From positions 1 through 50,669 of the forward strand of contig CACANA010000005.1 in NCBI GenBank assembly GCA_902533775.1: a DNA stretch of 50,669 bases. Direction: 5' to 3'. The stretch comes from an uncultured Pelagibacteraceae bacterium. Its GTDB lineage: Bacteria; Pseudomonadota; Alphaproteobacteria; Pelagibacterales; Pelagibacteraceae. The notes under the pieces were generated by a model. That model did no database searches and was not told where the DNA came from. It was given only the letters and a program-made list of their open reading frames with translations. Below are positions 6,181 through 24,445 of this stretch, in pieces. The stretch's first letter is position 1, and the number at the start of each line of letters is the position of its first letter. Both the position numbers and the translations under genes were made by a program.

Positions 6181-7235
6181 TGGCTAATAATTTTTTTGAA
6201 ATTGATAATGTTTCCTTTACTGCAGGTGGGAAAAACAAAGTTAATAATGTTTCTTTAAAAATTGAAAATGAAGGAGAAATTGTATGTTTACTTGGCCCCT
6301 CTGGCATAGGTAAAACCACAATATTAAGAACTATTGCAGGTTTAGAAAAAATTAATAAAGGTAAAATTAATCTGAAAGGTAGAACAATTTCTTCTGAAAA
6401 TATTCATATCGAACCAGAAAATCGTAATATTGCTCTATCATTTCAAGAAAACAGCTTATTTCCTCATTACAATATAGAAAAAAATATTAATCTTGGTTCA
6501 GATAGAGTGAAAGATCATAAAAAAATACAAACTAAAGAAGTAATTAATTTTTTAAACTTAAACAAAATATTAAATAAATTTCCGCATGAGATAAGTGCTG
6601 GCGAAGCCCAAAGAGCATCTCTAGCAAGATCTTTAGTTTCTCAACCTGATTTATTAATGCTTGATGAGCCATTATCTAATGTAGATCAAAGTTTCAAGGA
6701 GGAAATTCAAGTTGAATTAAAGCAAATTTTAACAAATTCTAAAATAACAACAATAATTGTAACACACGATTCTTATGAAGCTTTTTATCTAGGCAGTAAA
6801 TGTGGAATAATATTAGATGGTGAATTAAAGCAATATGATGATCCATATAACGTTTATCATTTACCAAATTCAATAGAAGTAGTTAATTTTTTAAATAGAG
6901 GTACATTAATACCAGCAGAAGTTACCAGTCCGAAAAGTCTTGAAAATGAAGATTTAGGTACAATAACTGGAAATTTCGCTAGACCGTTTCCAATAGGATC
7001 TAAAGTAAAATTATTAATACAACCAGAGGACTTACAGCATGATGATGCGAGTAATCTCAAACTTGAAGTAGTAGATAGAAAATTTAGAGGATCAAATTTT
7101 ATTTATACATTAAAAACATTAAGTAATAAATTAATACCAGTTTTTGTGCATTCTCATCATATTCATCAACATGAAGTTGATGAAAAATTTGGTATAAAAA
7201 GACCCATTCACATCGATCATATTGTTTGCTTTTAA
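6180..7235 (+). CDS. fbpC: Iron(III) ABC transporter ATPase (FbpC/FutC type)
   Basis: ATP-hydrolysing subunit of the iron transporter, 351 residues. It has Walker A GPSGIGKT (39-46), a Q-loop Q89, signature SAGEAQ (139-144), Walker B ending D162-E163, D-loop SNVD (166-169) and switch His196. The signature departs from the usual LSGGQ: Ala140 replaces Gly and Glu142 replaces Gln. All other catalytic residues are in place, so I expect it to be active. The C-terminal part from about residue 245 looks like a TOBE domain. It ends 26 bases before the DMGDH-like gene, which may be read through from this operon. Confidence 0.93.
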   Translation: MANNFFEIDNVSFTAGGKNKVNNVSLKIENEGEIVCLLGPSGIGKTTILRTIAGLEKINKGKINLKGRTISSENIHIEPENRNIALSFQENSLFPHYNIEKNINLGSDRVKDHKKIQTKEVINFLNLNKILNKFPHEISAGEAQRASLARSLVSQPDLLMLDEPLSNVDQSFKEEIQVELKQILTNSKITTIIVTHDSYEAFYLGSKCGIILDGELKQYDDPYNVYHLPNSIEVVNFLNRGTLIPAEVTSPKSLENEDLGTITGNFARPFPIGSKVKLLIQPEDLQHDDASNLKLEVVDRKFRGSNFIYTLKTLSNKLIPVFVHSHHIHQHEVDEKFGIKRPIHIDHIVCF

Positions 7236-7261
7236 ATTTAATTGTATAAATTACATTAAGT

Positions 7262-9700
7262 ATGAAGGAGTTACCAAAAAGTACTAAAGTAGTAGTTATT
7301 GGCGGAGGTGTTGCAGGAACATCTTGCGCTTATCATCTGGCAAAATTTGGTTGGAAAGATGTAATATTGCTTGAAAGAGATCAATTAACATCAGGAACTA
7401 CTTGGCACGCTGCAGGTCTTCTAGGTCAATTAGGTGCATCATCTACAATTACCAAAATTAGAAAATACTCTTTAGATCTTTATAAAGAATTAGAAAAGAC
7501 TACAGGATTATCAACTGGGATGAAGCAAAATGGTGCAATTACAGTTGCATCTACTAAAGAAAGAATGCAAGAATTGCTAAGACAAGCAACGACTGCACAA
7601 TTGTCTGATGTTGAAGTAGAAGTCTTAGATCACAAAAGATTAAAAGAATTATATCCAGTGATTCATAGTGAAGATCTTGTAGGTGGTGTTTACATGCCAA
7701 AAGATGGACAAGCAGATCCTGTTGGAGTTACTAACGTGCTTGCAAAAGCTGCAAAAATGGAAGGTGCTCAAATTTTTGAAAAAACTCCTGTAAAAAAAAT
7801 TTTAATTAAAAATTCTAGAATTAGTGGGGTAGAAACTGATAAAGGTGTCATTGATTGTGAATACGTTGTTATGGCTACAGGAATGTGGTCAAGACAATTA
7901 GGCGAAGAAATTAATGTTAGTGTTCCTTTATACCCAAATGAACATTTTTATATAATCACTGAGCCAATGAAAGATTTACCTCAAAATCTTCCTGTTTTAA
8001 GAGATTATAATGCTTGTTTATATTTGAAAGAAGATGCAGGGAAAATGCTTGTTGGAATTTTTGAACCAAATGCAAAACCAGCATTTAAGGAGACGGGAAG
8101 AGTACCTGATGACTTTTCTTTCGGCGAACTTCCCGATGATTTTGACCATTTTGAACCATATTTAGAAAAATCATTTCATAGATTACCAATGTTAGAAAGT
8201 GCAGGAATTAGAAAATTTTTCTCAGGCCCAGAATCTTTTACTCCAGATACGCAATACTTATTAGGAGAAACTCCTGAGGTAAAAAATTTATACACGTGTT
8301 GTGGTTTTAATAGTATTGGAATAGCAAGTTCAGGTGGTGCGGGTAGAGTAACAGCAGAATGGATGATGAATGGACATATAAATGAGGATTTATTTTCATT
8401 AGATATTAAAAGATTTCAGAAATTCCACTCTTCAAAAAACTTTATTATGGAAAGAGTTACAGAAACACTCGGTGATTTGTATGGAATGCATTGGCCATTT
8501 AAACAGCACAATACATCAAGAAATCAAAAGCTTTTACCTTATCACGAGGAATTAAAAAATGCTGGAGCTTGTTTTGGAGTTGCAGGGGGTTTTGAAAGAC
8601 CGATGTGGTATTCATTAAATGGTAAAGAGCCTAAGTATCAATATAGTTTTAATTATCAAAATTGGTACCCATCAGCAAAGCATGAAACTTTAAATGCAAG
8701 AAAAAATGTTGGACTTTTTGATTTTTCAACTTTTTCAAAGTTTGATTTAAAAGGGGAAAAAACTCATCAAGAACTTCAAAAGTTATGTACCGCTAACATT
8801 AAAAACGAAATTGGTAAAACAACATATACTCATATGCTGAATGAAGATGGGGGAATAGAAACAGATTTAACTGTTGTATGTATAGATAAAAACTTTTTTA
8901 GAGTTGTAAGCTCTGCAGCTACAAGAGAACACGATAAGTACCATATTTTAAAGTATTTAGATGAAGACGTATCTTTTAAAGATGTAACAGAAGATATTTG
9001 TTGTTTAGGATTGTTTGGTCCAAAGAGTAGAGAGATGATCTCGAAAATAAGCAATGATGACTTTAGTAACGATAAATTTAAGTTTGGAACTGGAAAGTTC
9101 ATAATGATAAATGGTGTTAAAGCTTGGGCTCAACGACTTTCTTACGTAGGTGAATTAGGATTTGAGCTTTATGTGGAATCAAGTTTAGCTAAGGATTTAT
9201 ATGAAATTCTAATTGAAGAGGGGAAAAACTTCGAATTATCTCATTGTGGAATGCATGCAATGGATATTATGAGAATGGAAAGTGGATTTGTTCACTGGGG
9301 ACATGATATTTCACCAGAAGAAAATCAGTATCAAGCAGGTTTAAAATTTGCAATTAGTTATAAGAAAAATGTAAACTTTGTTGGAAAAGATGCTCTATTA
9401 AAAATTAAAGACAAAAAATTAGATAAAAGAATGATGATGTTTACTCTTAAAGACAGCAAACCTGGTGAGCCACTTTTACTACATGAAGAACCTATTTATA
9501 TGGATGATAAAATTATTGGTAGAACAACTTCAGGAAATTATTCTTTTTGTTATAATAAAAATCTTTCATTTGGATATGTCAATTCTGGAAATACAATTGA
9601 AACATTAAAAGACAAAAATATATATATTGAAATTGAAAAACTAAAATACCCAGTTGAGGTATTAGAAAAACCTTTAAACAATAAAGATTTTAAGAACTAA
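7262..9700 (+). CDS. FAD-dependent dimethylglycine/sarcosine dehydrogenase-like protein with GcvT domain
   Basis: An 812-residue oxidase-aminomethyltransferase fusion. The N-terminal half has the FAD loop VVIGGGVAGTSCAYHLAKFG (11-30) and TSGTTWHAAGL, in which H49 matches the histidine that carries covalent FAD in dimethylglycine and sarcosine dehydrogenases. The half after about residue 425 looks like the GcvT folate-binding domain, with a GcvT C-terminal barrel. The family oxidatively demethylates N-methyl glycines and passes the one-carbon unit to tetrahydrofolate, so a role in glycine-betaine breakdown is likely. The exact substrate (dimethylglycine, sarcosine or another methylated amine) cannot be read from sequence. 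The 3' end overlaps the convergent EamA gene by 11 bases. Confidence 0.88.
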   Translation: MKELPKSTKVVVIGGGVAGTSCAYHLAKFGWKDVILLERDQLTSGTTWHAAGLLGQLGASSTITKIRKYSLDLYKELEKTTGLSTGMKQNGAITVASTKERMQELLRQATTAQLSDVEVEVLDHKRLKELYPVIHSEDLVGGVYMPKDGQADPVGVTNVLAKAAKMEGAQIFEKTPVKKILIKNSRISGVETDKGVIDCEYVVMATGMWSRQLGEEINVSVPLYPNEHFYIITEPMKDLPQNLPVLRDYNACLYLKEDAGKMLVGIFEPNAKPAFKETGRVPDDFSFGELPDDFDHFEPYLEKSFHRLPMLESAGIRKFFSGPESFTPDTQYLLGETPEVKNLYTCCGFNSIGIASSGGAGRVTAEWMMNGHINEDLFSLDIKRFQKFHSSKNFIMERVTETLGDLYGMHWPFKQHNTSRNQKLLPYHEELKNAGACFGVAGGFERPMWYSLNGKEPKYQYSFNYQNWYPSAKHETLNARKNVGLFDFSTFSKFDLKGEKTHQELQKLCTANIKNEIGKTTYTHMLNEDGGIETDLTVVCIDKNFFRVVSSAATREHDKYHILKYLDEDVSFKDVTEDICCLGLFGPKSREMISKISNDDFSNDKFKFGTGKFIMINGVKAWAQRLSYVGELGFELYVESSLAKDLYEILIEEGKNFELSHCGMHAMDIMRMESGFVHWGHDISPEENQYQAGLKFAISYKKNVNFVGKDALLKIKDKKLDKRMMMFTLKDSKPGEPLLLHEEPIYMDDKIIGRTTSGNYSFCYNKNLSFGYVNSGNTIETLKDKNIYIEIEKLKYPVEVLEKPLNNKDFKN

Positions 9701-10571
9701 TTTTCTTTTTTCTACTTTCGGCCTGAACAAATAAAACCCCAAATACTATTATTCCAATAACTCCAAAAGTTTTATTAAAATCAAAAGGTACACCAAAAAT
9801 ATAAAAGTTGATTAATGTTGACCAAATTAATTGTGAATATTGAAAATTAGTAACAAAAGATAAATTTGATAGCTGAATCGCAAATATAATTAAAAGATGA
9901 CTAGTAAAACCTAATACACCCAGAAATACTAACCAAATCCACAAGCTCTTATTCTCAATTGGTGTCCAGTCAAACATTACATAAATAGAGAAAACAATAG
10001 CCCCTACAACAGCAGCATAAAATAGCGCCACTAAAGGATCATTATTACCAGAAATAAATTTTGTAAAAAATTGATATAAAGCCCAACATACTGGTGGCAC
10101 CAAAGGAAAAATTAAGTCTAAACTTAAAACCTTCATACTTGGACTCATTGAATAAATTATACACCCGAAGCTTAACAACATTAAAATTATACCTTTAGGT
10201 GAAAGAATATCTTTTAAAAATATTGCCGTTAAAATTGATACTATTAGTGGAGCCGAGAAGAAAACTACATAGATATCGACAAGGTCAAATTTTTGTAAAG
10301 AATGAATAAAAAAAAAAGTAGCAAAAACCATTAATATAGATCTAATAATATTAATTTTAAAATTGCTTTTTAAGTTTAATTTAGGTTTTAATATTGCAAA
10401 TAAAATTAAAATAATGACAAAGTGAAAAAAAAATCTTCCCCAAATTACTTGATTTAATGGCATTAATGTTCCTAAATATTTTGCAGTAGAGTCTTGGCAA
10501 ACTAAAATAAAAAATCCAGATATAGATAAAATTATAACTTTGGTAATAGATTTATTTTTAAGAAAATTCAT
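9690..10571 (-). CDS. EamA/DMT-family transporter
   Basis: A 293-residue inner-membrane protein with about ten hydrophobic helices arranged as two EamA repeats. The first starts ITKVIILSISGFFILVCQDS and the second includes LIFPLVPPVCWALYQFFTKF. It ends in a short basic tail (ESRKKKISS). Members move small metabolites, often as exporters, but the substrate cannot be predicted. It is 15 bases downstream of the tartrate/malate-type dehydrogenase on the same strand. Its 3' end overlaps the convergent DMGDH-like gene, so no terminator fits between them. Confidence 0.88.
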   Translation of the reverse strand: MNFLKNKSITKVIILSISGFFILVCQDSTAKYLGTLMPLNQVIWGRFFFHFVIILILFAILKPKLNLKSNFKINIIRSILMVFATFFFIHSLQKFDLVDIYVVFFSAPLIVSILTAIFLKDILSPKGIILMLLSFGCIIYSMSPSMKVLSLDLIFPLVPPVCWALYQFFTKFISGNNDPLVALFYAAVVGAIVFSIYVMFDWTPIENKSLWIWLVFLGVLGFTSHLLIIFAIQLSNLSFVTNFQYSQLIWSTLINFYIFGVPFDFNKTFGVIGIIVFGVLFVQAESRKKKISS

Positions 10572-10586
10572 AATTTTGATTAAATT

Positions 10587-11660
10587 TTAGACTGAACTAA
10601 GATTATCTAAAATTTTTTTTGAGCACTGTTCAGTATTACTAGAGCCTTGAAGATCTTTTGTTCGACTGTTTTTATCTTTAAGAGTTAATTCAATTGATTT
10701 TACTATTCTATCAGAAGCTTCTTTTTCACCTAAGTAATCCAACATCATTGCAGCTGACCAAATTTGACCCACTGGATTTGCTATCCCTTGTCCTGCAATA
10801 TCTGGTGCAGATCCATGAACGGGTTCAAATAAAGATGGGTATTTATTTGTTGGATTAATATTTCCAGACGGTGCAATTCCAATAGTACCAGTACAAGCTG
10901 GCCCTAGATCTGATAAAATATCTCCAAAAAGGTTTGATGCGACTATCACATCAAAACGTTCAGGACTTAGAACAAATCTAGCAGCTAATATATCAATATG
11001 GTACTGATCAGTTTCTACATCAGAATAATTCTTTTTATTCTCATTAAATCTTTCGTCCCAATAAGGCATTGTAATTGATATTCCATTGGATTTTGTTGCA
11101 CTTGTTAATTTTTTTCTTTTTCTTTTTTTAGCTAATTCAAAAGCAAATTGTTGAACTCTATCTATTCCATATTTTGACATTATTGTTTCTTGAATAACCA
11201 CTTCTCTATCAGTTCCCTGATACATTCTTCCACCGACTGATGAGTATTCTCCTTCAGTATTTTCTCTTACAATTATCATATCAATATCACCAGGTTTTTT
11301 ATTAGCTAACGGTGCATTTACACCTTCAAAAAGTTTTACAGGTCTTAAGTTAATAAATTGATCAAACTCTCTTCTAAATTTTAATAACGAACCCCAAAGT
11401 GTTATATGATCTGGATATTTATCTGGCATGCCAACTGCACCAAAGAAAATTGCATCGTGTTTAGTGAGCTTTTCTTTCCAGTCGTCTGGCATCATTTTTC
11501 CATGTTTTTCATAATAATCACATGATGCAAAATCATAATCTTCTATATTTAATTTAAATTGATGTTGCTGAGAAATTTCTTTTAAAATTTTTTGCGCTTC
11601 AGGTACAACTTCTTTTCCAATGCCATCACCAGAAATTGACGCTATTGAATATTCTTTCAT
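10587..11660 (-). CDS. Tartrate / D-malate-type dehydrogenase (isocitrate/isopropylmalate dehydrogenase family)
   Basis: A 357-residue NAD-dependent beta-decarboxylating dehydrogenase. Motifs include GDGIGKE (11-17), LLKFRREFDQFINLRPVKL (92-110), VRENTEGEYSSVGGR (131-145), K190 in TSATKSNG, the metal aspartates D223, D247 and D251, and NLFGDILSDL. The NTEGEYS block, in place of the TGGIYF type of LeuB, points to the TtuC/DmlA branch that acts on tartrate or D-malate. A 3-isopropylmalate role seems unlikely but not excluded. The start codon directly abuts the stop of the upstream GMP reductase gene (11660/11661), so the two are co-transcribed. Confidence 0.82.
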   Translation of the reverse strand: MKEYSIASISGDGIGKEVVPEAQKILKEISQQHQFKLNIEDYDFASCDYYEKHGKMMPDDWKEKLTKHDAIFFGAVGMPDKYPDHITLWGSLLKFRREFDQFINLRPVKLFEGVNAPLANKKPGDIDMIIVRENTEGEYSSVGGRMYQGTDREVVIQETIMSKYGIDRVQQFAFELAKKRKRKKLTSATKSNGISITMPYWDERFNENKKNYSDVETDQYHIDILAARFVLSPERFDVIVASNLFGDILSDLGPACTGTIGIAPSGNINPTNKYPSLFEPVHGSAPDIAGQGIANPVGQIWSAAMMLDYLGEKEASDRIVKSIELTLKDKNSRTKDLQGSSNTEQCSKKILDNLSSV

Positions 11661-16018: not shown

Positions 16019-16095
16019 GGCGGGGTAGCTCAGTTGGTTAGAGCGCGGGACTCATAAGCCCGAGGTCAGTGGTTCGATCCCACTTCCCGCTACCA
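16019..16095 (+). tRNA. tRNA-Met (anticodon CAT, elongator type)
   Basis: A full cloverleaf can be drawn. The acceptor pairs 16019-16025 (GGCGGGG) with 16085-16091 (TCCCGCT), using G-U at both ends. The D stem is GCTC/GAGC (16028-16031, 16041-16044). The anticodon CAT is at 16053-16055 and the T arm is 16068-16084 with loop TTCGATC. The discriminator A and an encoded CCA end at 16095. The paired first position and the lack of a GGG/CCC anticodon stem argue against the initiator, and overall it resembles alphaproteobacterial elongator tRNA-Met. tRNA-Ile2 (lysidine) cannot be excluded. The last anticodon-stem pair (A31/G39, 16050/16058) is mismatched. Confidence 0.93.
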
Positions 16096-16139: not shown

Positions 16140-16988
16140 ATGAAATTTATTGTAAAAATTATCATATTTCAGTTGCTTTTTATCTCAGGTTCTTTTGCAA
16201 AAGTAGATAAAGTAGTAGATAGATTTTATTCTTCTTTGGAAAGCTTTTTGGAGGAGAATTTTGAAAATACTGATTTTTCAATAAAAAAAATTGAAACTAT
16301 CAAACCTGAAATAGGTATACAAACATTTAAGATTATTTCAGAAGATAATTCAGATTTATCCTTTTTCCAAGGATCTCTATTTTTACACGACAGTGACAGA
16401 GAAACATTTAACCTAGGATTTGGACAAAGATATTTATCTAATGATGAAAGTATATTATTTGGTTTAAATGCTTTTTATGATTATGAATTTGATTATGAGC
16501 ACCAAAGATTTAGTATAGGTGCTGAAATTAAATCTTCCATTCTAGATTTAAATTACAATCAATATTTTGCTCAAAGTTCTAGTAAAAAAGGAAAAAATAG
16601 TAAAAATGAAGAAGCTATCGATGGATTTGATGTTGAGTTAGGTGCACATCTTCCCTACATTCCATCTATGAAAGCTTATTTGAAAGCTTTCGATTTTGAG
16701 GTTTCTGGTGGAAAAGATTTTCAAGGTTTAGAAATTTCGACACAATTTAAAGTACCGAATTCTGGACTTTCATTTGAAATTGGTCATACTGATTACGATC
16801 ATCACAATGATCAAAGTTTTATCAATCTTAGATATAGTAATAGTATAAAAAATCCAGGCACATCTTTATTTAGTAGTGAGGCTTTTGAAAGAATTTCCAT
16901 GAAAGATAGAATTTATGAGAAAGTTAGAAGAGATAATATCATAAAGAAAAAAGGAGCGGGTTTTACTGTTAAAGCAGGAGGATTTTAA
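16140..16988 (+). CDS. Stand-alone inverse autotransporter beta-barrel (intimin/invasin-type) without passenger
   Basis: A 282-residue outer-membrane protein with a signal peptide (MKFIVKIIIFQLLFISGSFA). Residues 91-132 (from NLGFGQRYLSNDESILFGLN through NAFYDYEFDYEHQRFSIGAE) and 161-186 (DGFDVELGAHLPYIPSMKAY) match the barrel of intimin/invasin-type inverse autotransporters. The C-terminus YEKVRRDNIIKKKG resembles the linker that follows the barrel in intimins, and the protein ends there with no Ig-like or lectin passenger. A strong SD (AGGAGG, 16977-16982) and a TAATG overlap couple it to the next gene, an exported protein. I infer a surface role, possibly as a two-polypeptide system. Confidence 0.78.
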   Translation: MKFIVKIIIFQLLFISGSFAKVDKVVDRFYSSLESFLEENFENTDFSIKKIETIKPEIGIQTFKIISEDNSDLSFFQGSLFLHDSDRETFNLGFGQRYLSNDESILFGLNAFYDYEFDYEHQRFSIGAEIKSSILDLNYNQYFAQSSSKKGKNSKNEEAIDGFDVELGAHLPYIPSMKAYLKAFDFEVSGGKDFQGLEISTQFKVPNSGLSFEIGHTDYDHHNDQSFINLRYSNSIKNPGTSLFSSEAFERISMKDRIYEKVRRDNIIKKKGAGFTVKAGGF

Positions 16989-17851
16989 TGAATAATTTTA
17001 AATATTTATTTTTGATTTTATCTACAATTTTTATTTTTGAGATGTTTAACTCTAATAGGGCTGAAGCATGTACAATTAATTCTGGAGTTGTAAAACATGG
17101 ATCAACTGGTGCCGATGATTCTATAGAAGATGGATGTGACACAACTCCAAATTCCTATGAAGTGGTTATTTACAAGTTATATTTATGCACATCTTCTCCG
17201 ACAGAAGCCACAACGACATCGACAGTTGTTTTAACAAATTGTTCACAAATTTTTGATAATTCAAGTGGAGCAACCGCATCCGTATCGCAAGGACAAGAAA
17301 TAGTTTTAGATGGCACTTACACTCGACCTCCAGATGGGACTTATACCCATGGTTATGCATTTATGGACAATACATTTGGTATAACTTGGGCAGGAGAGAT
17401 TGCAGCATCAATGGATGGAATGACAGGAGGATCTGGTGTTTTTTGTGGAACAGTAGCTGGTTCAGGAACACATGCAAAAGGTAGCACTCATAGTAATAGC
17501 TCTGTTTGTGGTGCAAGTGCCATAACCCCAGGAAAATTTGTTGAAACTTTAGCTCAATTTGGTGCATCCTCGGATGCATTTTCATCAAAAGCTTTTGTTG
17601 AAAATATTAATGGAACTACAGCTAGTATAACTGGATATTTAGTTGATAGTAACGGTCACAGAGCCGCAAACACAGGTGAAGTAGACAAACTTGAGGGATT
17701 AGTTGCTTTTGCAAATCCAGTAGTTATTACTTCAGATACTACATCTATAAGTATGACATTTAATGTAGGTGAAGGAATGCACCTTGTTGATGAGAGTGAC
17801 GAATTATATATTGGAAGTGGACCTTTCCAAGCAATAATGACCGCAAATTAA
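16988..17851 (+). CDS. Exported Cys-containing, Ser/Thr/Gly-rich protein, possible surface partner of the barrel protein
   Basis: A 287-residue protein starting with a hydrophobic signal segment (MNNFKYLFLILSTIFIFEMF) and a likely cleavage site near AEA-C at residue 27/28; this is not a classic lipobox. The mature protein is rich in Ser, Thr, Gly and Ala with six Cys (28, 50, 67, 85, 153, 174), which could make three disulfides. It includes a Gly/Ser/His stretch near residues 145-175. Charged residues are few compared with neighbours. I recognise no family. Translation is coupled to the inverse-autotransporter barrel upstream, and its TAA shares TTAA with the stop of convergent apt. Confidence 0.78.
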   Translation: MNNFKYLFLILSTIFIFEMFNSNRAEACTINSGVVKHGSTGADDSIEDGCDTTPNSYEVVIYKLYLCTSSPTEATTTSTVVLTNCSQIFDNSSGATASVSQGQEIVLDGTYTRPPDGTYTHGYAFMDNTFGITWAGEIAASMDGMTGGSGVFCGTVAGSGTHAKGSTHSNSSVCGASAITPGKFVETLAQFGASSDAFSSKAFVENINGTTASITGYLVDSNGHRAANTGEVDKLEGLVAFANPVVITSDTTSISMTFNVGEGMHLVDESDELYIGSGPFQAIMTAN

Positions 17852-18375
17852 TGTCCTGGAAAATCTAAAAGATTTTCAACTGGATATCCCTTTTTAACTA
17901 GATTATCTGTACCGCCCAAATCAAAAAGATTTATTACAAATATAAATCCAGCTACTTTACTTTTTGATATCTCAATCAATTTAGCTGCTGCCTCTGCAGT
18001 ACCTCCAGTAGCAATTAAATCGTCTATTATTAAGACTCTATCATTTTCATGAAATGAATCTTTGTGAACTTCTATTGTAGCCGTTCCGTATTCTAATTCA
18101 AAATCAACAGAATGTACTTCTGCAGGTAATTTATTTTTCTTTCTTAACATTATGAATGGTTTATCAAGTATATAAGAAACAGCTGACGCAAAAACAAATC
18201 CTCTAGATTCTACAGCTGCAACTTTATCAAACTGGAATTTTTTTGATCTTTCAACAATTTGGTTAATACATTCTTTGAATGCCTTTTCATTTTTAATAAG
18301 TGTTGTAATATCTCTGAAAAGAATTCCCTTTTTAGGATAGTCTTGAATTGATCTAATATGTTCTTTTAAATCCAT
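17848..18375 (-). CDS. apt: Adenine phosphoribosyltransferase
   Basis: Salvages adenine with PRPP to AMP. The 175-residue length is standard. The PRPP-binding motif VLIIDDLIATGGTA is at 114-127, the flexible-loop region ESRGFVFASAV is at 56-66, and the N-terminus DYPKKGILFRDITTL is family-typical. It is divergent from mtnP with only 28 bp between start codons. Adenine is the product that MtnP releases from methylthioadenosine, so the pair forms a salvage unit with a shared promoter region. The stop shares a TTAA with the convergent exported-protein gene. Confidence 0.95.
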   Translation of the reverse strand: MDLKEHIRSIQDYPKKGILFRDITTLIKNEKAFKECINQIVERSKKFQFDKVAAVESRGFVFASAVSYILDKPFIMLRKKNKLPAEVHSVDFELEYGTATIEVHKDSFHENDRVLIIDDLIATGGTAEAAAKLIEISKSKVAGFIFVINLFDLGGTDNLVKKGYPVENLLDFPGH

Positions 18376-18383
18376 AAAACTTA

Positions 18384-18391
18384 ATTATAAT
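18384..18391. promoter_or_regulatory. Palindromic -10-like box in the apt/mtnP divergent gap
   Basis: The 28-bp gap between apt (start 18375) and mtnP (start 18404) contains ATTATAAT, which is its own reverse complement and gives TATAAT on each strand (18386-18391 plus, 18389-18384 minus). Initiation 6-8 bases downstream of either box would leave 5-8 nt leaders at most. Any -35 contacts would lie in the neighbouring coding ends. The promoter function is inferred. Confidence 0.5.
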
Positions 18392-18403
18392 CTAAATTGT
18401 ATT

Positions 18404-19276
18404 ATGGCAAATAATAAATTAGCAATTATTGGCGGAAGTGGCCTATATGATGTTGAAGAGTTTAAAGACAGAGAGACACTAGATTTAAATACTCCATGGG
18501 GAAAACCTTCTGATTTAATTTTAAAGGCAAAATACAATAATAAAGAAATTTATTTTCTGCCAAGACATGGAAAAGGTCATTTTATCTCTCCATCAAAAAT
18601 AAATTTTAGAGCAAATATTGATGCACTTAAACAACTGGGTATCACAGACATAGTTTCTGTTTCAGCTGTTGGATCCTTAAAAGAAGATTTACCTCCAGGT
18701 AAATTTGTTATTGTTGATCAGTTCATTGATAGAACTTTTGCAAGGAACAAAACTTTTTTTGATGATGAGATTGTTGCGCATGTATCTATGGCACATCCAA
18801 CCTCAAATGGGTTGATGAATGCTTGTGAGGAGGCGATTAAAAAAGAAAGCATACCTTATCAGAAAAGTGGAATCTATGTTGTTATGGAAGGACCACAATT
18901 TTCAACATTGGCAGAGTCAAATTTATATAGATCATGGAAAGCAGATGTTATTGGAATGACAAATATGCCAGAAGCTAAACTAGCAAGAGAAGCAGAAATT
19001 AGATATGCTTCAGTATCGATGGTAACAGATTATGATTGTTGGCATCCAGATCACGAAAATGTTGATGTTCAACAAGTTATAAAAGTACTCTTAGATAATG
19101 CCGCGAAAGCAAAAAATATGATTAAAAACTTGATAGAGAACTTTGAAAATCACATTGATCCTAATGACCCAACTAATAATTGCTTAGATGTTGCAATAAT
19201 TACTGCTCCAGAAAAAAGAACACAAAAAACTAAAGATAAATTAAAAACAATTGCAGGAAGGGTTTTAAATATATGA
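18404..19276 (+). CDS. mtnP: 5'-methylthioadenosine phosphorylase
   Basis: Splits methylthioadenosine with phosphate into adenine and 5-methylthioribose-1-phosphate. The 290-residue protein has the phosphate loop IIGGSGLYD (8-16), the RHGKGH block with SPSKINFRANIDALKQLGI, and MEGPQFSTLAESNLYRSW with IGMTNMPEAKLAREAE, which are typical of MTAP rather than general purine nucleoside phosphorylase. The following gene overlaps by 4 bases (ATGA) and mtnA comes next, placing the protein in a methylthioadenosine salvage operon fed by the nearby spermidine-synthase gene. Confidence 0.93.
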   Translation: MANNKLAIIGGSGLYDVEEFKDRETLDLNTPWGKPSDLILKAKYNNKEIYFLPRHGKGHFISPSKINFRANIDALKQLGITDIVSVSAVGSLKEDLPPGKFVIVDQFIDRTFARNKTFFDDEIVAHVSMAHPTSNGLMNACEEAIKKESIPYQKSGIYVVMEGPQFSTLAESNLYRSWKADVIGMTNMPEAKLAREAEIRYASVSMVTDYDCWHPDHENVDVQQVIKVLLDNAAKAKNMIKNLIENFENHIDPNDPTNNCLDVAIITAPEKRTQKTKDKLKTIAGRVLNI

Positions 19277-20205
19277 AGAAACTATTTTTAATTTCATTAT
19301 TTTTGATTATTTCTAATTTCGCTTACGCTAATGGTAAAATTTTAAAAAGTGGATTTTTTACTAAATCAGCTTCAGTAGATGAGGGTATGGAAGTAAAAGA
19401 TCCAAAAAACAAAATTATAATTATTTATAATCATGGTCAAAATTCAAATGATAAAGCACACAAGAACGAATGTATTTGGGTAAATCAAATAAGAAATCAA
19501 GCTTCATTAGTTGATGAGGAAATTAATGGTAAAAAAATTATGGTTTATAATTTCTGCTCAAATGATTTTGCAGGCGATATGTCATTAAAAAAACACTGGT
19601 GGAAGTCCAAAACTCCTTATGTGGGCAAACATAAGTTAGACAAAAGGATTGAAAAAAATTTAGAATTAGTTGAAAAATTTATAAGCATAGGAGTTCCAAG
19701 AAAACAAATTATCATATCAGGCCATTCATGTGGAGGTCTATTAACCCTAATGTTGTTATCATCTCACCCTGAAAAAGTAGGTGGCGGTATATCATATATG
19801 CAAGCTTGCTTTGGTCAGCTTTCTAAAAGTTATAAAGTAAAAAAAGTAGGTCCTGAAAAGGCATTAGAAAAATTTGCTAAAAAATACCCTGGCCCTGCTG
19901 AATTAAGAGCAAGACAAATTAATAATATTAAAAATTCTGAAAATGTTCCTGTTCTCGCTTTTACGCATCCAAAAGATAAGTTTGAAGGTCTGTTATCTGA
20001 CTGGTTAGAAGAAGTTCCAGGAGTTAAAAGAATTGTTATTTCTGAAGATTATAAAATTAACGGAAAATCTTGTGTTGTTAAAGGAGTTGATTGGCAAAAA
20101 AATATCTCAGCTCAGAAAAATCCAGGTCATGAAATGAACCAGGCTGATTGTTTTCAATATTATAATCCAACAATTAAAGAATACATTGCTTATAGAATAA
20201 AATAA
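19273..20205 (+). CDS. Exported alpha/beta-hydrolase-fold protein of unknown substrate
   Basis: A 310-residue protein with a signal peptide (MKKLFLISLFLIISNFAYAN). Downstream is an alpha/beta hydrolase core: strand NKIIIIYNHGQNSND, nucleophile elbow ISGHSCGGLLTLMLLSSHPE, and a late GHEMNQADC segment that may carry the catalytic His. Several Cys in the mature region suit an oxidising periplasm. It overlaps mtnP by 4 bases and mtnA by one, an intimate position for an apparently periplasmic protein between two cytosolic salvage enzymes. I cannot name the substrate; esterase or dienelactone-hydrolase-like activity is possible. Confidence 0.75.
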   Translation: MKKLFLISLFLIISNFAYANGKILKSGFFTKSASVDEGMEVKDPKNKIIIIYNHGQNSNDKAHKNECIWVNQIRNQASLVDEEINGKKIMVYNFCSNDFAGDMSLKKHWWKSKTPYVGKHKLDKRIEKNLELVEKFISIGVPRKQIIISGHSCGGLLTLMLLSSHPEKVGGGISYMQACFGQLSKSYKVKKVGPEKALEKFAKKYPGPAELRARQINNIKNSENVPVLAFTHPKDKFEGLLSDWLEEVPGVKRIVISEDYKINGKSCVVKGVDWQKNISAQKNPGHEMNQADCFQYYNPTIKEYIAYRIK

Positions 20206-21281
20206 TGAAAATTAATGGTGTTGAATATAAAACAATTTGGTTTGATGAAGAAAAACAAGTTGTAAAAATAATAGATCAAACAAAGTTACCACATAAATTT
20301 ATAATAAAAGAATTAAATTCAGTTAAAGACGCTATAAATGCTATTAAAACAATGGAAGTTCGAGGTGCTCCATTAATCGGAGGCACAGCTGCATTTGGAT
20401 TGGTTTTAGCTATAAAAGAAAATAACAGTTTAGAATTTATAAAAAAAAGTTCGGAAGAATTAGTTGCTTCTAGGCCGACGGCTATAAATCTTCAGTGGGC
20501 AGTTCATAGAATGAATAACAAATTATCATTTGTTGAACCTGGAGATTTATTTAATGTTGCACTCAATGAAGCTATAGAAATTTGTAAAGAAGATGAGGGA
20601 TTTTGTGAAAGTATTGGTAAAAATGGATTAAATATTATTGAAGATATATATAATAAAAAAAAAGATACCGTAAATATTCTCACACATTGTAATGCAGGTT
20701 GGTTAGCTACAATAGATTGGGGAACGGCAACTTCTCCTATTTATCATGCACATAAAAAAGGAATACCAATACATGTTTGGGTAGATGAAACTAGACCAAG
20801 AAATCAAGGAGCAAACCTTACATCATACGAACTTAACGAAGAAGAAATTCCAAATACAATTATAGCAGATAATACTGGTGGAATATTAATGCAAAGAGGA
20901 CAGGTTGATATGTGTATTGTTGGAACAGATAGAACATTATCTAATGGAGATGTGTGCAATAAAATTGGCACTTATTTAAAAGCCCTAGCAGCTCATGATA
21001 ATAAGGTACCTTTTTATGTTGCTTTACCAAGTTCAACGATAGATTGGAATTTAAAAAACTCCAAAGATATTCCAATAGAAGAAAGAGACCCAAAAGAACT
21101 TTCTCATGTGGATGGAATTAACAAAGATAATAAAGTTGATAAAGTTTTAATATATCCTGAAAAAAGCAAATCATTAAATTTAGCCTTTGATGTAACACCT
21201 GCAAAATATGTTACTGCATTAATAACAGAAAAGGGAGTTTGTAATGCTTCTTCTGAGGGCTTAAAAAAATTATTTAATTAA
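20205..21281 (+). CDS. mtnA: Methylthioribose-1-phosphate isomerase
   Basis: Isomerises 5-methylthioribose-1-phosphate to 5-methylthioribulose-1-phosphate, the step after MtnP. The 358-residue protein has MEVRGAPLIGGTAAFGL (50-66), RPTAINLQWA (90-99), catalytic C162 in THCNAGWLAT, and D242 in VGTDR, the Cys/Asp pair of the MtnA family; the related eIF2B subunits lack it. It is the last gene of the mtnP operon and its TAA abuts the stop of the convergent aldolase-dehydrogenase fusion. No mtnB, mtnC or mtnD is in the window. Confidence 0.92.
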   Translation: MKINGVEYKTIWFDEEKQVVKIIDQTKLPHKFIIKELNSVKDAINAIKTMEVRGAPLIGGTAAFGLVLAIKENNSLEFIKKSSEELVASRPTAINLQWAVHRMNNKLSFVEPGDLFNVALNEAIEICKEDEGFCESIGKNGLNIIEDIYNKKKDTVNILTHCNAGWLATIDWGTATSPIYHAHKKGIPIHVWVDETRPRNQGANLTSYELNEEEIPNTIIADNTGGILMQRGQVDMCIVGTDRTLSNGDVCNKIGTYLKALAAHDNKVPFYVALPSSTIDWNLKNSKDIPIEERDPKELSHVDGINKDNKVDKVLIYPEKSKSLNLAFDVTPAKYVTALITEKGVCNASSEGLKKLFN

Positions 21282-23315
21282 TTATCTTAAAGAAGCTGCA
21301 ATATTTCCACCGTCAACAGTTAGTACTGCTCCAGTTGATTTTTTTGATATCGCAAGATGATAAAAAGCTTTGGCCACATCATCTGCTTTAACTTCGCTTA
21401 ACAGTAGATTACCACTCATATATTGATCCGTGGTTACTTCTCTTGCTTTTGCTCTTTGTTTAATCATTTTATCATTTAATAAACCACTTCTAATTCTATC
21501 AGCGTTTACACCATTTGATCTTATACCAAGGTGTCCATAATCAACAGCATATTGTTTACATAAATTTAAAAGCGCAGACTTAGGCAATCCATATGGTCCA
21601 AAATTTTTACCAGGATTAACTGATTGCTTAGATATATTAAATAACAAACACCCATTTATATTTTGTTTTTTCATAATTTTTACAGCCTCTGAAGCACAAT
21701 TTTGGTGTGAGAAAAAATTATCTTCAAAACTTTTTCGAAGTATTTCATCATTAACTTCTGCAATTGATCCACCTATAGCAGTACCAGCATTAGATATTAA
21801 AATATCTACTCCTCCATATATTTCCAAAATTTTACTAAATGCTTTTTTTACGCTTTGTTTGTTGGTTACATCACAGTGGATACAAAGATCACTTATTTTA
21901 CTCTTTAAATCATTTATCTTACTTTTATTAATATCAAGCAAAACAACCTCAGCTCCATATTTTTTAAATAATTTATAAGTTGCTTTACCAATTTCACCAG
22001 TGCTACCAGTGATAACAACTACATTGCCTTGCAATTCTTTTTTTGCTTTGTTTAATTTTGCTTGTTCTAAGGACCAATACTCGACATCAAATAAGTCTTT
22101 TTTTGATAAGAATTTATATCTGGAAGTCTCTTCAACGCTTGAAATTACATTGGCATTAGTTTGTGTTAAATCTCCTGCAATTTTTGCAGCTTTTAAGGTA
22201 TCTCCTACTGTAAATAAACCAAAATTCTGAACTAGAATTACTCTAGGAGATGTATCAAGCATTACTTTTTTTTCTTTAGTTTTTTTCTTATTAGATTCAA
22301 AATATTTTTTATATTTTTGCCTATATTCTTTGAATTTTTTTTCAGCTAAATTTTTAAATTCATCTAAAGTACAGTTTGCTTTTGGTGATATTACTAAAGG
22401 AAATGGTTTAACTCTTATGACGTGATCAGGTGTAGCTGTACCTTCATTTGAGTATCTATTTATATCTTTACCATTAATAAAATAATCTAACTTACTATTT
22501 TTTTTAAAATTTAAGATAAACTTGTTATCATTTTTTTCAGATAAAAGACCTCTCAATATAGGAGCTATATCTGCAGTTGAGAAATTAAATTTAGTTTTCT
22601 TTACCTGTTTTATTTTTTTCTTTTTTAGTTTGGTTAAAGTTTTTTCAGCATCAGATATATACTTTATCATTAAACTGTAAGCATCTTTTGCATTATCAGC
22701 AAATGTGAAAATGCCGTGGTTTAATAAAATCAAACAATTTATATTTGGATTTTTAGAATAAACTTCATTTATTTTTTGTGCTAATTTAAATCCTGGCATT
22801 ACATAGGGTACTATTGCAGTTTTTTTACCAAATATTTTTTTTGATAATATTTCTCCATTTGGTCTATTAGTGATTTTCATAATTGCATCAGAATGAGTGT
22901 GATCAACAAATTTAAACGGTAAAAATGCGTGTAAAAAAGTTTCAACTGATGGATTGGGTGATTTTGTATCTATTAAATTTTTTTTTTGAAAAGCAACCAT
23001 GTCATCATCAGAGAGAGTTTTCTTTTTTTTCATAGTTAGCAATGGATTTAATTTAACAGCTGGTAAACCTGCTGGTTCAATTTCAGCCATATCCCATCCG
23101 CTGCCTTTTACGCAAAGGACATCGTAATATTTACCATCTATATCTTTGATTTTGGTCTTAACTGAAGTATTGCCACCACCATGCAAGACCAATTCTGGAT
23201 TTCTTCCTAGAAGCCTAGTTGTATAAACTCTTAAAGCCATATCTTCAGAATGACCTAATTTCTTATACTTTTTAATATATTTTTTAGCTTCGTTTTCTGA
23301 CCAATTGTTTTTCAA
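21282..23315 (-). CDS. Bifunctional class II aldolase / short-chain dehydrogenase
   Basis: A 677-residue fusion of two enzymes. The N-terminal class II (zinc) aldolase part carries GGGNTS (46-51), E125, H139/H141 in VDHTHSDAI and H200 in LLNHGIFTF. The C-terminal short-chain dehydrogenase has TGSTGEIG (436-443), NAG (509-511) and the YGLPK catalytic pair Y575/K579. The architecture matches the RhaD-type 'rhamnulose-phosphate aldolase/alcohol dehydrogenase' family. No rhamnose kinase or isomerase is nearby, while mtnP, mtnA and speDE flank it. Cleavage of methylthioribulose-1-phosphate to DHAP and methylthioacetaldehyde, with reduction or oxidation by the second domain, is therefore plausible but inferred. 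Confidence 0.88.
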   Translation of the reverse strand: MKNNWSENEAKKYIKKYKKLGHSEDMALRVYTTRLLGRNPELVLHGGGNTSVKTKIKDIDGKYYDVLCVKGSGWDMAEIEPAGLPAVKLNPLLTMKKKKTLSDDDMVAFQKKNLIDTKSPNPSVETFLHAFLPFKFVDHTHSDAIMKITNRPNGEILSKKIFGKKTAIVPYVMPGFKLAQKINEVYSKNPNINCLILLNHGIFTFADNAKDAYSLMIKYISDAEKTLTKLKKKKIKQVKKTKFNFSTADIAPILRGLLSEKNDNKFILNFKKNSKLDYFINGKDINRYSNEGTATPDHVIRVKPFPLVISPKANCTLDEFKNLAEKKFKEYRQKYKKYFESNKKKTKEKKVMLDTSPRVILVQNFGLFTVGDTLKAAKIAGDLTQTNANVISSVEETSRYKFLSKKDLFDVEYWSLEQAKLNKAKKELQGNVVVITGSTGEIGKATYKLFKKYGAEVVLLDINKSKINDLKSKISDLCIHCDVTNKQSVKKAFSKILEIYGGVDILISNAGTAIGGSIAEVNDEILRKSFEDNFFSHQNCASEAVKIMKKQNINGCLLFNISKQSVNPGKNFGPYGLPKSALLNLCKQYAVDYGHLGIRSNGVNADRIRSGLLNDKMIKQRAKAREVTTDQYMSGNLLLSEVKADDVAKAFYHLAISKKSTGAVLTVDGGNIAASLR

Positions 23316-23334
23316 TGTTTATCCTCGATAAATT

Positions 23335-23342
23335 ATTATAAT
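23335..23342. promoter_or_regulatory. Palindromic -10-like box in the aldolase/speDE divergent gap
   Basis: ATTATAAT recurs here, the same self-complementary octamer found between apt and mtnP. It lies 19 bases upstream of the aldolase-dehydrogenase start (23315) and 62 bases before the speDE start (23405). It could serve both strands. Use as a promoter is inferred, and AT-rich DNA makes chance matches likely. Confidence 0.35.
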
Positions 23343-23404
23343 AGTTTTTTGTTTGAAAGAAGTAAAAAATTTCGTTAGTTAAAAAAGATATATATTAGAT
23401 TCTT

Positions 23405-24445
23405 ATGGAAAAAGTTGGGGAACATATAACACTGGATATAGTTGGAACTAAAAAGGAATATACTCCCGAATTTTATGAAAAGTTAGTTTATAAAATTGCT
23501 AAAGCAGCAAAAGTAACAGTTTTAAAAATTTCTAAATATAAATTTGAGCCACAAGGATTTACATTGGTCGCTTTGCTTGCTGAAAGCCACATTAGTTTTC
23601 ATACTTTCCCAGAAAAAGAAATTGTAAGCTTTGATTTTTTTACATGTGGAAAAGTATCACCAAAAGTTTCTCTCGACATAATAAAAGACGAGATGGAACA
23701 TACAAATATCATAATTAAAGAATTTAATAGAGATACTATTGATCTTTATCATGACAATTATAGTTCTCCAGGTTTAAAAAAATCATATGTTGTTAATAGA
23801 GTTTTAGAAAATTTTAAATCTAAAGTTGGTCAATATATTGAAATACTTGATTTAGAACAATTTGGAAAAGCTTTATTTATTGATAATGAGATACAAGTAG
23901 CTGAAAGTGATGAACACTTATATAGCTCAACCTTTGTAAATTCAGGTCTTAATTTAAATTCAAACAAAGAAAAAGCCGCAATTATTGGTGGAGGTGACGG
24001 TGGTGTTGCAAGAGAATGCATTTCACAAAACTTTGGCTTTATAGATTGGTATGAATTAGACCCTGAGGTTGTTGATGTATGTGATAAACATCTTAGCAAA
24101 ATTGGTGAGAAAGCTACCGAAAAGAATTCAGTTAAATGTGTTTGGGGAGATGCTTTTGAAAGTATTAAATCTGTTAAAGACAATACTTATGATCAAATAT
24201 TTGTTGATCTAAATGATGATCAATTTTGTATAGATTTGGCTGCAAAAAATATGTCATCTTTAGAAAGAATTTTAAAACCTAAAGGTGTAATTACCGCTCA
24301 AGTAGGAAGCCAAGACAAAAAACCAAAACAAGTTGAAAATTGGTTAAATGTTTTTAACAAAAATTTTGGAAATACAAAACTTTCAAGAGTTTATATACCA
24401 AGTTTCGATTGTTCTTGGAATTTTTCCTCGTCAATAAATCATTAA
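23405..24445 (+). CDS. Fused S-adenosylmethionine decarboxylase and spermidine synthase-like aminopropyltransferase
   Basis: A 346-residue fusion. Residues 1-115 are a bacterial-type AdoMet decarboxylase: the self-cleavage site is E60/S61 in LLAESHISFH, with H66 and C81 (FFTCGK) matching the processing and proton-donor residues. Residues 125-346 are a spermidine-synthase-like domain with GGGDGG (195-200), E217 in YELDPEV, D249 and D268/D271. The usual DSTDP-type catalytic block reads DLND, and the YHE motif after the Asp/Glu-rich loop reads YSST. The product is probably spermidine or a similar polyamine plus methylthioadenosine, which the neighbouring mtnP/mtnA/apt genes would recycle. It diverges from the aldolase fusion. 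Confidence 0.88.
   Translation: MEKVGEHITLDIVGTKKEYTPEFYEKLVYKIAKAAKVTVLKISKYKFEPQGFTLVALLAESHISFHTFPEKEIVSFDFFTCGKVSPKVSLDIIKDEMEHTNIIIKEFNRDTIDLYHDNYSSPGLKKSYVVNRVLENFKSKVGQYIEILDLEQFGKALFIDNEIQVAESDEHLYSSTFVNSGLNLNSNKEKAAIIGGGDGGVARECISQNFGFIDWYELDPEVVDVCDKHLSKIGEKATEKNSVKCVWGDAFESIKSVKDNTYDQIFVDLNDDQFCIDLAAKNMSSLERILKPKGVITAQVGSQDKKPKQVENWLNVFNKNFGNTKLSRVYIPSFDCSWNFSSSINH

What the first reader, a model, noticed from the sequence alone, without database searches (positions are those of the whole stretch)
17848..24445. Polyamine synthesis, methylthioadenosine salvage and a candidate fused DHAP-shunt enzyme in one locus
speDE makes methylthioadenosine, mtnP splits it, apt takes the adenine, mtnA makes methylthioribulose-1-phosphate. 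None of the classical next enzymes (mtnB, C, D) is here; instead a class II aldolase fused to a short-chain dehydrogenase abuts mtnA. In the known DHAP shunt a class II aldolase cleaves methylthioribulose-1-phosphate to DHAP and methylthioacetaldehyde, and a dehydrogenase then handles the aldehyde. The fusion could do both steps in one protein and would return carbon and reduced sulfur.
Basis: partly seen in the sequence, partly recalled or inferred. Interest (0 to 1): 0.78.

Follow-up and report, generated by a model that had tools for sequence, protein, structure and literature searches.

The report
Fused SAR11 methylthioadenosine-salvage aldolase-dehydrogenase
In this SAR11 ocean bacterium, a two-part enzyme encoded between genes that make polyamines and genes that recycle their sulfur-containing by-product is predicted to split that by-product's sugar and likely also to process the aldehyde released, and sister strains carry a different, smaller aldolase in the same slot.

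Summary
The interpretation gains strong comparative support. In 157 Pelagibacterales genomes no mtnB, mtnD or RuBisCO-like protein passes its cut-off. Of 89 genomes with mtnA, 70 have a stand-alone ~215-aa FucA/Ald2-like aldolase near mtnA, 17 have the fusion, none has both, and 2 have neither, both because a contig ends there. An mtnA tree needs about 8 swaps (at least 4). Beyond SAR11, the fusion's family (NF006192, not the rhamnose family TIGR02632) is linked to mtnA or mtnP in 33 of 50 carriers among 289 Alphaproteobacteria. Rhamnose isomerase TIGR02629 is absent from all 66 carriers tested. The closest characterised enzyme, RhaEW, oxidises its aldehyde with NAD+, so the fusion is predicted to make DHAP plus (methylthio)acetate; reduction to methylthioethanol is not excluded, and no activity was tested. 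Against: 8 of 50 class carriers also have an ARD (mtnD-family) match, 3 lack an identifiable mtnA, and the SAR11 short aldolase resembles E. coli FucA slightly more than E. coli Ald2. Verdict: a new variant of the known DHAP shunt.

The parts
17848..18375 (-). apt, adenine phosphoribosyltransferase, divergent from mtnP
   Evidence: TIGR01090 201.5 bits, cut-off 185.85
18404..19276 (+). mtnP, S-methyl-5'-thioadenosine phosphorylase
   Evidence: NF006492 439.3 bits (cut-off 437), TIGR01694 311.8 bits (cut-off 274.85)
19273..20205 (+). alpha/beta-hydrolase-like ORF in the variable slot between mtnP and mtnA; probably not part of the pathway
   Evidence: PF02230 23.3 bits (cut-off 23); the slot holds other genes or nothing in other SAR11
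20205..21281 (+). mtnA, S-methyl-5-thioribose-1-phosphate isomerase
   Evidence: TIGR00512 412.5 bits (cut-off 279); 57% identical to MtnA of the E. coli S88 mtnK-mtnA-ald2 cluster
21282..23315 (-). class II aldolase (about residues 1-227) fused to a classical SDR (about 425-677); predicted methylthioribulose-1-phosphate aldolase / aldehyde dehydrogenase or reductase
   Evidence: NF006192 905 bits (cut-off 639), TIGR02632 444.2 bits (cut-off 567.75); context and exclusivity; model
23405..24445 (+). speD-speE fusion (AdoMet decarboxylase plus spermidine synthase), source of methylthioadenosine
   Evidence: TIGR03330 92.6 bits (cut-off 75.65), PF01564 86.4 bits (cut-off 22.9); beside the fusion in 54 of 57 SAR11 loci, the other 3 being cut by contig ends

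Best explanation
The aldolase-SDR fusion beside mtnA is predicted to be the enzyme that ends a dihydroxyacetone-phosphate (DHAP) shunt: its aldolase half would cleave 5-methylthioribulose-1-phosphate into DHAP and methylthioacetaldehyde, and its SDR half would likely oxidise that aldehyde with NAD+ to (methylthio)acetate. Shown here: the gene content and order; conservation of the metal ligands and of the SDR tetrad; absence of other known takers of methylthioribulose-1-phosphate in Pelagibacterales (mtnB and RuBisCO-like protein, and mtnD downstream, none over cut-off); mutual exclusion with a stand-alone FucA/Ald2-like aldolase in the same slot; and family-wide linkage to mtnA or mtnP. From established pathway knowledge: SpeD-SpeE releases methylthioadenosine, MtnP and MtnA turn it into methylthioribulose-1-phosphate, Apt takes the adenine. 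Inferred: the substrate, from context and exclusion; coupling of the two halves and the oxidative direction, from RhaEW, the closest characterised relative, which gives no DHAP without NAD+. Reduction to 2-methylthioethanol, the outcome in known DHAP shunts, is the main open alternative for the second step.
Against: No activity was measured. In the class sample 8 of 50 carriers also have an ARD (mtnD-family) match over cut-off, 6 of them over 60 bits, against 12 and 6 of 239 non-carriers, so the fusion does not always replace the oxygen-dependent route. 3 of 50 carriers show no mtnA match; one, G186, lies among ABC-transporter and sugar-kinase-like genes and may act on another sugar. The Reyranella-type clade has no mtn gene in the fetched flanks. 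The SAR11 short aldolase is 41-47% identical to E. coli FucA and only 37-40% to E. coli Ald2, so its own Ald2 role is also inferred. On direction: the SDR carries the canonical Asn that RhaEW-type proteins lack (9 of 9 Leu), which would also suit ordinary alcohol-aldehyde redox. Fisher p values treat related genomes as independent.
Confidence: 0.75

Rival explanations
1. Same aldolase step, but the SDR half reduces methylthioacetaldehyde with NADH to 2-methylthioethanol. The fusion then supplies the unidentified 'putative alcohol dehydrogenase' of the known DHAP-methanethiol shunt.
For: Known DHAP shunts yield 2-methylthioethanol by an unassigned dehydrogenase (PMC5893883 and PMC10986504, passages); the fusion's SDR has a full Asn-Ser-Tyr-Lys tetrad, and Leu replaces the Asn in 9 of 9 RhaEW-type proteins.
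Against: RhaEW, the closest characterised relative, oxidises with NAD+ and gives no DHAP without it (PMC3870299, passages); the conserved Asp461 suggests NAD(H), which more often serves oxidation (general knowledge).
Confidence: 0.35
2. The enzyme mainly disposes of 5-deoxyadenosine, the radical-SAM by-product: it cleaves 5-deoxyribulose-1-phosphate to DHAP and acetaldehyde, which the SDR half converts to acetate or ethanol. This can coexist with the methylthio role.
For: The E. coli DHAP shunt handles both substrates (PMC10986504, passages), and B. thuringiensis DrdA cleaves 5-deoxyribulose-1-phosphate (PMC6079011, passages).
Against: In SAR11 the gene sits beside speDE, which makes methylthioadenosine, in 54 of 57 loci, the rest being cut there.
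Confidence: 0.2
3. It is a rhamnulose-1-phosphate aldolase/lactaldehyde dehydrogenase (RhaEW), as some databases name it.
For: Same domain order and 29-32% identity to RhaEW-type proteins; two of the 120 listed records call it RhaD.
Against: Fails TIGR02632; separate clade; no TIGR02629 rhamnose isomerase in 66 of 66 carriers, although the same model scores 671 bits beside a RhaEW-type gene; the one FGGY kinase classified in a SAR11 carrier is glycerol kinase.
Confidence: 0.04
4. It acts on another sugar-1-phosphate, such as ribulose-1-phosphate from nucleosides, and its place beside mtnA is incidental.
For: Class II aldolases are promiscuous (PMC6302742, passage); 17 of 50 class carriers show no mtn gene within about 2 kb in the stretch held, some on short contigs.
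Against: Slot exclusivity and repeated swapping with an Ald2-like enzyme; 33 of 50 linked, the 24 closest in 13 families.
Confidence: 0.1

Closest known systems
DHAP shunt with Ald2 (R. rubrum, R. palustris, E. coli ATCC 25922)
   Same: MtnP (or nucleosidase plus MtnK), MtnA, then a class II aldolase predicted to give DHAP and methylthioacetaldehyde; 70 of 89 sampled SAR11 mtnA genomes carry a stand-alone Ald2/FucA-like enzyme near mtnA.
   Different: Here the aldolase is a distantly related long form (no significant BLASTP match to the short one) fused to an SDR, and the fate of the aldehyde is predicted to be settled in the same protein.
RhaEW / RhaD_aldol-ADH (TIGR02632), rhamnulose-1-phosphate aldolase-lactaldehyde dehydrogenase
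   Same: Same two-domain architecture, shared metal ligands and NAD-binding Asp.
   Different: 29-32% identity, separate clade, below the family cut-off, Glu instead of Asp at residue 125, Asn instead of Leu at 533, and mtn rather than rha neighbours.
NCBIfam NF006192 'bifunctional aldolase/short-chain dehydrogenase'
   Same: The window protein is a member (905 bits, cut-off 639).
   Different: The model's name gives no substrate; this work proposes methylthioribulose-1-phosphate for most of the family.
DEP1 / MtnB-type fusions of methionine salvage
   Same: A class II aldolase-fold domain fused to a second salvage enzyme, acting after MtnA.
   Different: DEP1 is a dehydratase-phosphatase fusion of the oxygen-dependent route (PMC6079011, passage); here the partner is an SDR and the mtnB model is not met.

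Membership tests
RhaEW / TIGR02632 rhamnulose-1-phosphate aldolase-SDR | Score over the curated cut-off of 567.75 bits | tested here: not met
   444.2 bits; 448-467 in three other SAR11 members and 488-496 in two non-SAR11 members, against 853-980 for three RhaEW-type proteins
RhaEW / TIGR02632 rhamnulose-1-phosphate aldolase-SDR | Encoded within a rhamnose locus, with a rhamnose isomerase in the genome | tested here: not met
   TIGR02629 0 of 66 carriers; neighbours are mtn and spe genes. RhaA-type isomerase PF06134 was not searched
RhaEW / TIGR02632 rhamnulose-1-phosphate aldolase-SDR | Cleaves rhamnulose-1-phosphate and oxidises lactaldehyde | not testable with these tools
   needs an assay
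NF006192 aldolase/SDR | Score over the curated cut-off of 639 bits | tested here: met
   905 bits
DHAP shunt | MtnP (or nucleosidase and MtnK) and MtnA | tested here: met
DHAP shunt | A class II aldolase in the place after MtnA, other MtnA-product enzymes absent | tested here: met
   fusion abuts mtnA; mtnB, mtnD, RuBisCO-like 0 of 157 over cut-off; mtnC not searched
DHAP shunt | Methylthioribulose-1-phosphate aldolase activity | not testable with these tools
   needs an assay
Ald2 (FucA-like short aldolase) | About 215-aa stand-alone protein homologous to Ald2 | tested here: not met
   677 aa with SDR; no significant BLASTP match between short SAR11 aldolase and fusion
MtnB dehydratase TIGR03328 | Score over the cut-off of 137.05 bits | tested here: not met
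   no match in the window's genome; 125 of 157 genomes have sub-threshold matches, 0 of 157 over cut-off
Classical SDR | Glycine-rich NAD motif and Asn-Ser-Tyr-Lys tetrad | tested here: met
   TGSTGEIG, Asn533, Ser562, Tyr575, Lys579; the tetrad assignment is recalled from SDR literature

The most novel reading that the evidence does not exclude
NF006192 is a one-protein oxidative DHAP shunt found across Alphaproteobacteria: it turns methylthioribulose-1-phosphate straight into DHAP and (methylthio)acetate with NAD+, never releasing the reactive aldehyde, and SAR11 lineages have repeatedly swapped it for a stand-alone aldolase, toggling between two ways of recycling the by-product of polyamine synthesis in the surface ocean.
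Probability: 0.42. Interest if true: 0.8.

Novelty: new variant of a known kind. Interest (0 to 1): 0.72.

Why it matters
SAR11 cells are among the most abundant in the ocean and, as generally known, need reduced sulfur from outside, so the fate of methylthioadenosine is a real budget item for them; here that fate gets a concrete, testable gene. The finding also proposes a substrate for a widespread NCBI family now named only by its domains or mistaken for rhamnose enzymes, and a candidate for the unassigned aldehyde-handling step of the DHAP shunt. The repeated exchange of two unlike aldolases at one locus is a natural complementation experiment that predicts both do the same first step.

Tried and rejected
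Rejected: rhamnose catabolism; classical methionine salvage by mtnB-D in Pelagibacterales (mtnC not searched); the MTA-isoprenoid (RuBisCO-like) shunt there; the idea that the short aldolase is mtnB (61-76 bits against 137 in five proteins).

Led nowhere: a search for a shared neighbour that would reveal the next step gave only housekeeping-looking genes near the mtn-linked fusions (bc1-complex-like, YchF-like, peptidyl-tRNA-hydrolase-like, a dienelactone-hydrolase-like protein; names by eye), no obvious thiol-releasing enzyme. Rfam found only a tRNA in the window. The structure model and fold searches confirm the two folds but not the substrate; loops 44-46 (aldolase glycine loop) and 512-519 and 564-573 (near the SDR active site) have low confidence. 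Literature: the listings (titles and starts of abstracts) showed no paper that links an aldolase-SDR fusion to methylthioadenosine; the library holds only open-licence papers. Of PMC10986504, PMC6302742, PMC8437039, PMC3870299, PMC5893883, PMC6079011 and PMC12632272 only passages found by term were seen.

Data left out: fusion proteins under 560 aa (L160, L180, L253) were dropped, and loci L187-L220 were not used for the fusion set; the fusion tree used 83 of the 158 proteins kept, mainly to thin near-copies and duplicates, and without the partial L251 and L252. It was a quick build that warns of long branches meeting. For the mtnA tree, stretches under 330 aligned residues and identical rows were dropped, leaving 98; its bootstrap had not fully settled. 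In the exclusivity count one short aldolase lies 9075 bp from mtnA, three lie 1.0-2.6 kb away and eight 235-399 bp away. Some PF00596 rows were not printed; by its per-genome counts they are the matches of f1 fusions and one weak match in G141 whose place is unknown.
Full report
What is there. The window lies in a Pelagibacterales (SAR11) genome of 965 kb in 53 contigs, 74% complete; its fusion protein is 97-99% identical to those of ten uncultured Pelagibacteraceae genomes. mtnA and the fusion converge with no base between the stop codons. The fusion starts at TTG 23315 with a GAGGA six bases upstream and diverges from the speD-speE gene. That start aligns with the Met of family f2 relatives.

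Other routes are missing. In an even sample of 157 Pelagibacterales genomes, 115 of them at least 90% complete, none has a match over cut-off to mtnB (125 have sub-threshold matches, which are other class II aldolases), mtnD (one sub-threshold 21.8-bit match) or the RuBisCO large-chain family that holds RuBisCO-like proteins. mtnC was not searched. So methylthioribulose-1-phosphate, which mtnA would make in 89 of the 157 (86 over cut-off), has no other known taker here except class II aldolases.

Two aldolases, one slot. The fusion is full length in 17 of 157 (14 in family f1, 3 in f2), and all 17 have mtnA, in G100 as a fragment at a contig end. Most other mtnA genomes have a stand-alone 210-232-aa aldolase; in the loci read it usually starts where mtnA stops and is followed by speDE. 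Counting within 10 kb of mtnA: 70 short only, 17 fusion only, 0 both, 2 neither, of 89. Both exceptions are assembly ends: in G141 mtnA stops 201 bases from the contig end; in G144 the last 4.1 kb of the contig align at 93% to G088 and stop within about a dozen bases of where G088 has the fusion's stop codon. None of the 57 SAR11 fusion loci of the collection scan shows the short aldolase. Fisher's test gives p = 2e-16 for the exclusion and 4e-5 for the tie to mtnA, but related genomes are not independent. A tree controls for that: over 98 MtnA proteins the label 'fusion or short' needs 8 changes (7-9 in bootstrap trees, at least 4 forced by supported branches), and G120 and G124, which have the short aldolase, nest inside the window's own clade. 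Five short aldolases scored best with FucA-like models (197-214 bits, below their cut-offs) and failed the mtnB model. They are 37-40% identical to Ald2 of the E. coli S88 mtnK-mtnA-ald2 cluster and 41-47% to E. coli K-12 FucA; S88 Ald2 itself is annotated L-fuculose-phosphate aldolase. The short aldolase and the fusion give no significant BLASTP match (E = 0.011), so this is replacement by a distant relative, not by an ortholog.

Neighbourhood of the fusion. Of 80 loci kept from the genome-collection scan, 57 are SAR11 and 23 other Alphaproteobacteria. speDE adjoins the fusion in 54 of 57 SAR11 loci; the other three begin at a contig end there. mtnA lies in 53 of the 57 stretches: within 100 bp in 24, at 0.1-3.5 kb in 21, farther (up to about 9 kb, beyond inserted genes) in 8. 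In two of the three family f2 genomes apt-mtnP-mtnA-fusion run in one direction with overlapping ends; the third has mtnA-fusion on a short contig. Among the 23 others, L169, L179 and L182 show mtnP-apt-mtnA-fusion, L162 mtnP-fusion, L178 mtnA-fusion; the remaining 18 show no mtn gene in the stretch held.

Class-wide test. In 289 alphaproteobacterial genomes drawn evenly, 50 hold a protein over the NF006192 cut-off. 45 of these 50 have mtnA over cut-off, against 81 of 239 without the fusion (p = 9e-14, not corrected for kinship). With fragments, 47 of 50. In 24 of 50 the fusion is within 400 bp of mtnA; in 23 of these it follows mtnA on the same strand, the window being the exception; they span 13 families. 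Four more are within 1.9 kb of mtnA, and five others adjoin mtnP or mtnP-apt, giving 33 of 50. Against a strict replacement: ARD matches over cut-off occur in 20 of 289, 8 of them fusion carriers; over 60 bits in 12, six of them carriers. Three carriers show no mtnA match; G186 sits among transporter and kinase-like genes.

Not the rhamnose enzyme. The window protein scores 444 bits with TIGR02632, below 567.75, and 905 with NF006192, above 639. Three RhaEW-type proteins from the same class sample score 853-980 with TIGR02632, and two of these sit beside rhamnose isomerase genes scoring 671 and 630 bits with TIGR02629 (cut-off 647). No carrier of 66 has a TIGR02629 match; the other isomerase type, PF06134, was not searched. 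FGGY kinases, the family of rhamnulo- and fuculokinase, occur in 14 of 17 SAR11 carriers; the one I classified is glycerol kinase. In a tree of 83 fusions the RhaEW type is one clade with support 100, and the SAR11 fusions one clade with support 95 (quick method). The mtn-linked members are spread through the NF006192 clade, so an mtn role may be ancestral there (inference).

What is known and what is new. The DHAP shunt, its MtnP variant and Ald2 are known, as is the SpeD-SpeE fusion of SAR11 (PMC8437039, passage, which calls SpeE a multidomain product of a gene fusion). RhaEW was reported as always lying in rha loci; the NF006192 fusions are therefore a distinct kind by place and sequence. 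The listings of ten literature searches showed no paper on an aldolase-SDR fusion in methylthioadenosine salvage, and the search for 'DHAP shunt' with 'Pelagibacter' found none. I file it as a new variant of the DHAP shunt.

Noticed in passing
window 19273-20205 and the mtnP-mtnA gap in L040, L045, L050, L052, L061, L097, L099: The gap between mtnP and mtnA is a small variable slot: a hydrolase-like gene here, other unrelated genes or nothing in other SAR11 genomes, although mtnP and mtnA stay.
   Followed up: partly
window 16140-16988: An inverse-autotransporter beta-domain protein (PF11924, 129 bits), followed by a 287-aa ORF without Pfam match and preceded by a tRNA at 16019-16092; an intimin-like surface protein is unexpected in a streamlined SAR11 cell.
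   Followed up: no
L099 5008-13981, L097 5619-10999 and L283: In the G088/G144 clade genes that look like a sulfatase, a TRAP transporter and others (named by eye) lie between mtnA and the fusion, parting the two by 9 kb.
   Followed up: partly
L232 (G186) 4693-11605: An NF006192 member without any mtnA match in its genome, next to ABC-transporter, glycerol-3-phosphate-dehydrogenase-like and FGGY-kinase-like genes (named by eye): possibly a branch with another substrate.
   Followed up: no
L164, L165, L166, L167, L171, L240: Reyranella- and Enhydrobacter-type fusions keep the same active-site signature but show no mtn gene nearby; some lie near genes that look like a xanthine phosphoribosyltransferase, an alcohol dehydrogenase or TauD (named by eye).
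   Followed up: partly
L169 5260-7268, L182 4661-5206, and a cluster of 12 mtn-linked loci: Several mtnP-apt-mtnA-fusion operons of other Alphaproteobacteria lie beside genes that look like the cytochrome bc1 complex (named by eye).
   Followed up: no
L230 5177-7129 and L231 5965-7917: A third type of aldolase-SDR fusion (L230: best model NF006196, 764 bits, cut-off 831) with a second class II aldolase-like gene and a kinase-like gene nearby, in genomes (G349, G441) that also hold the mtn-linked fusion.
   Followed up: no
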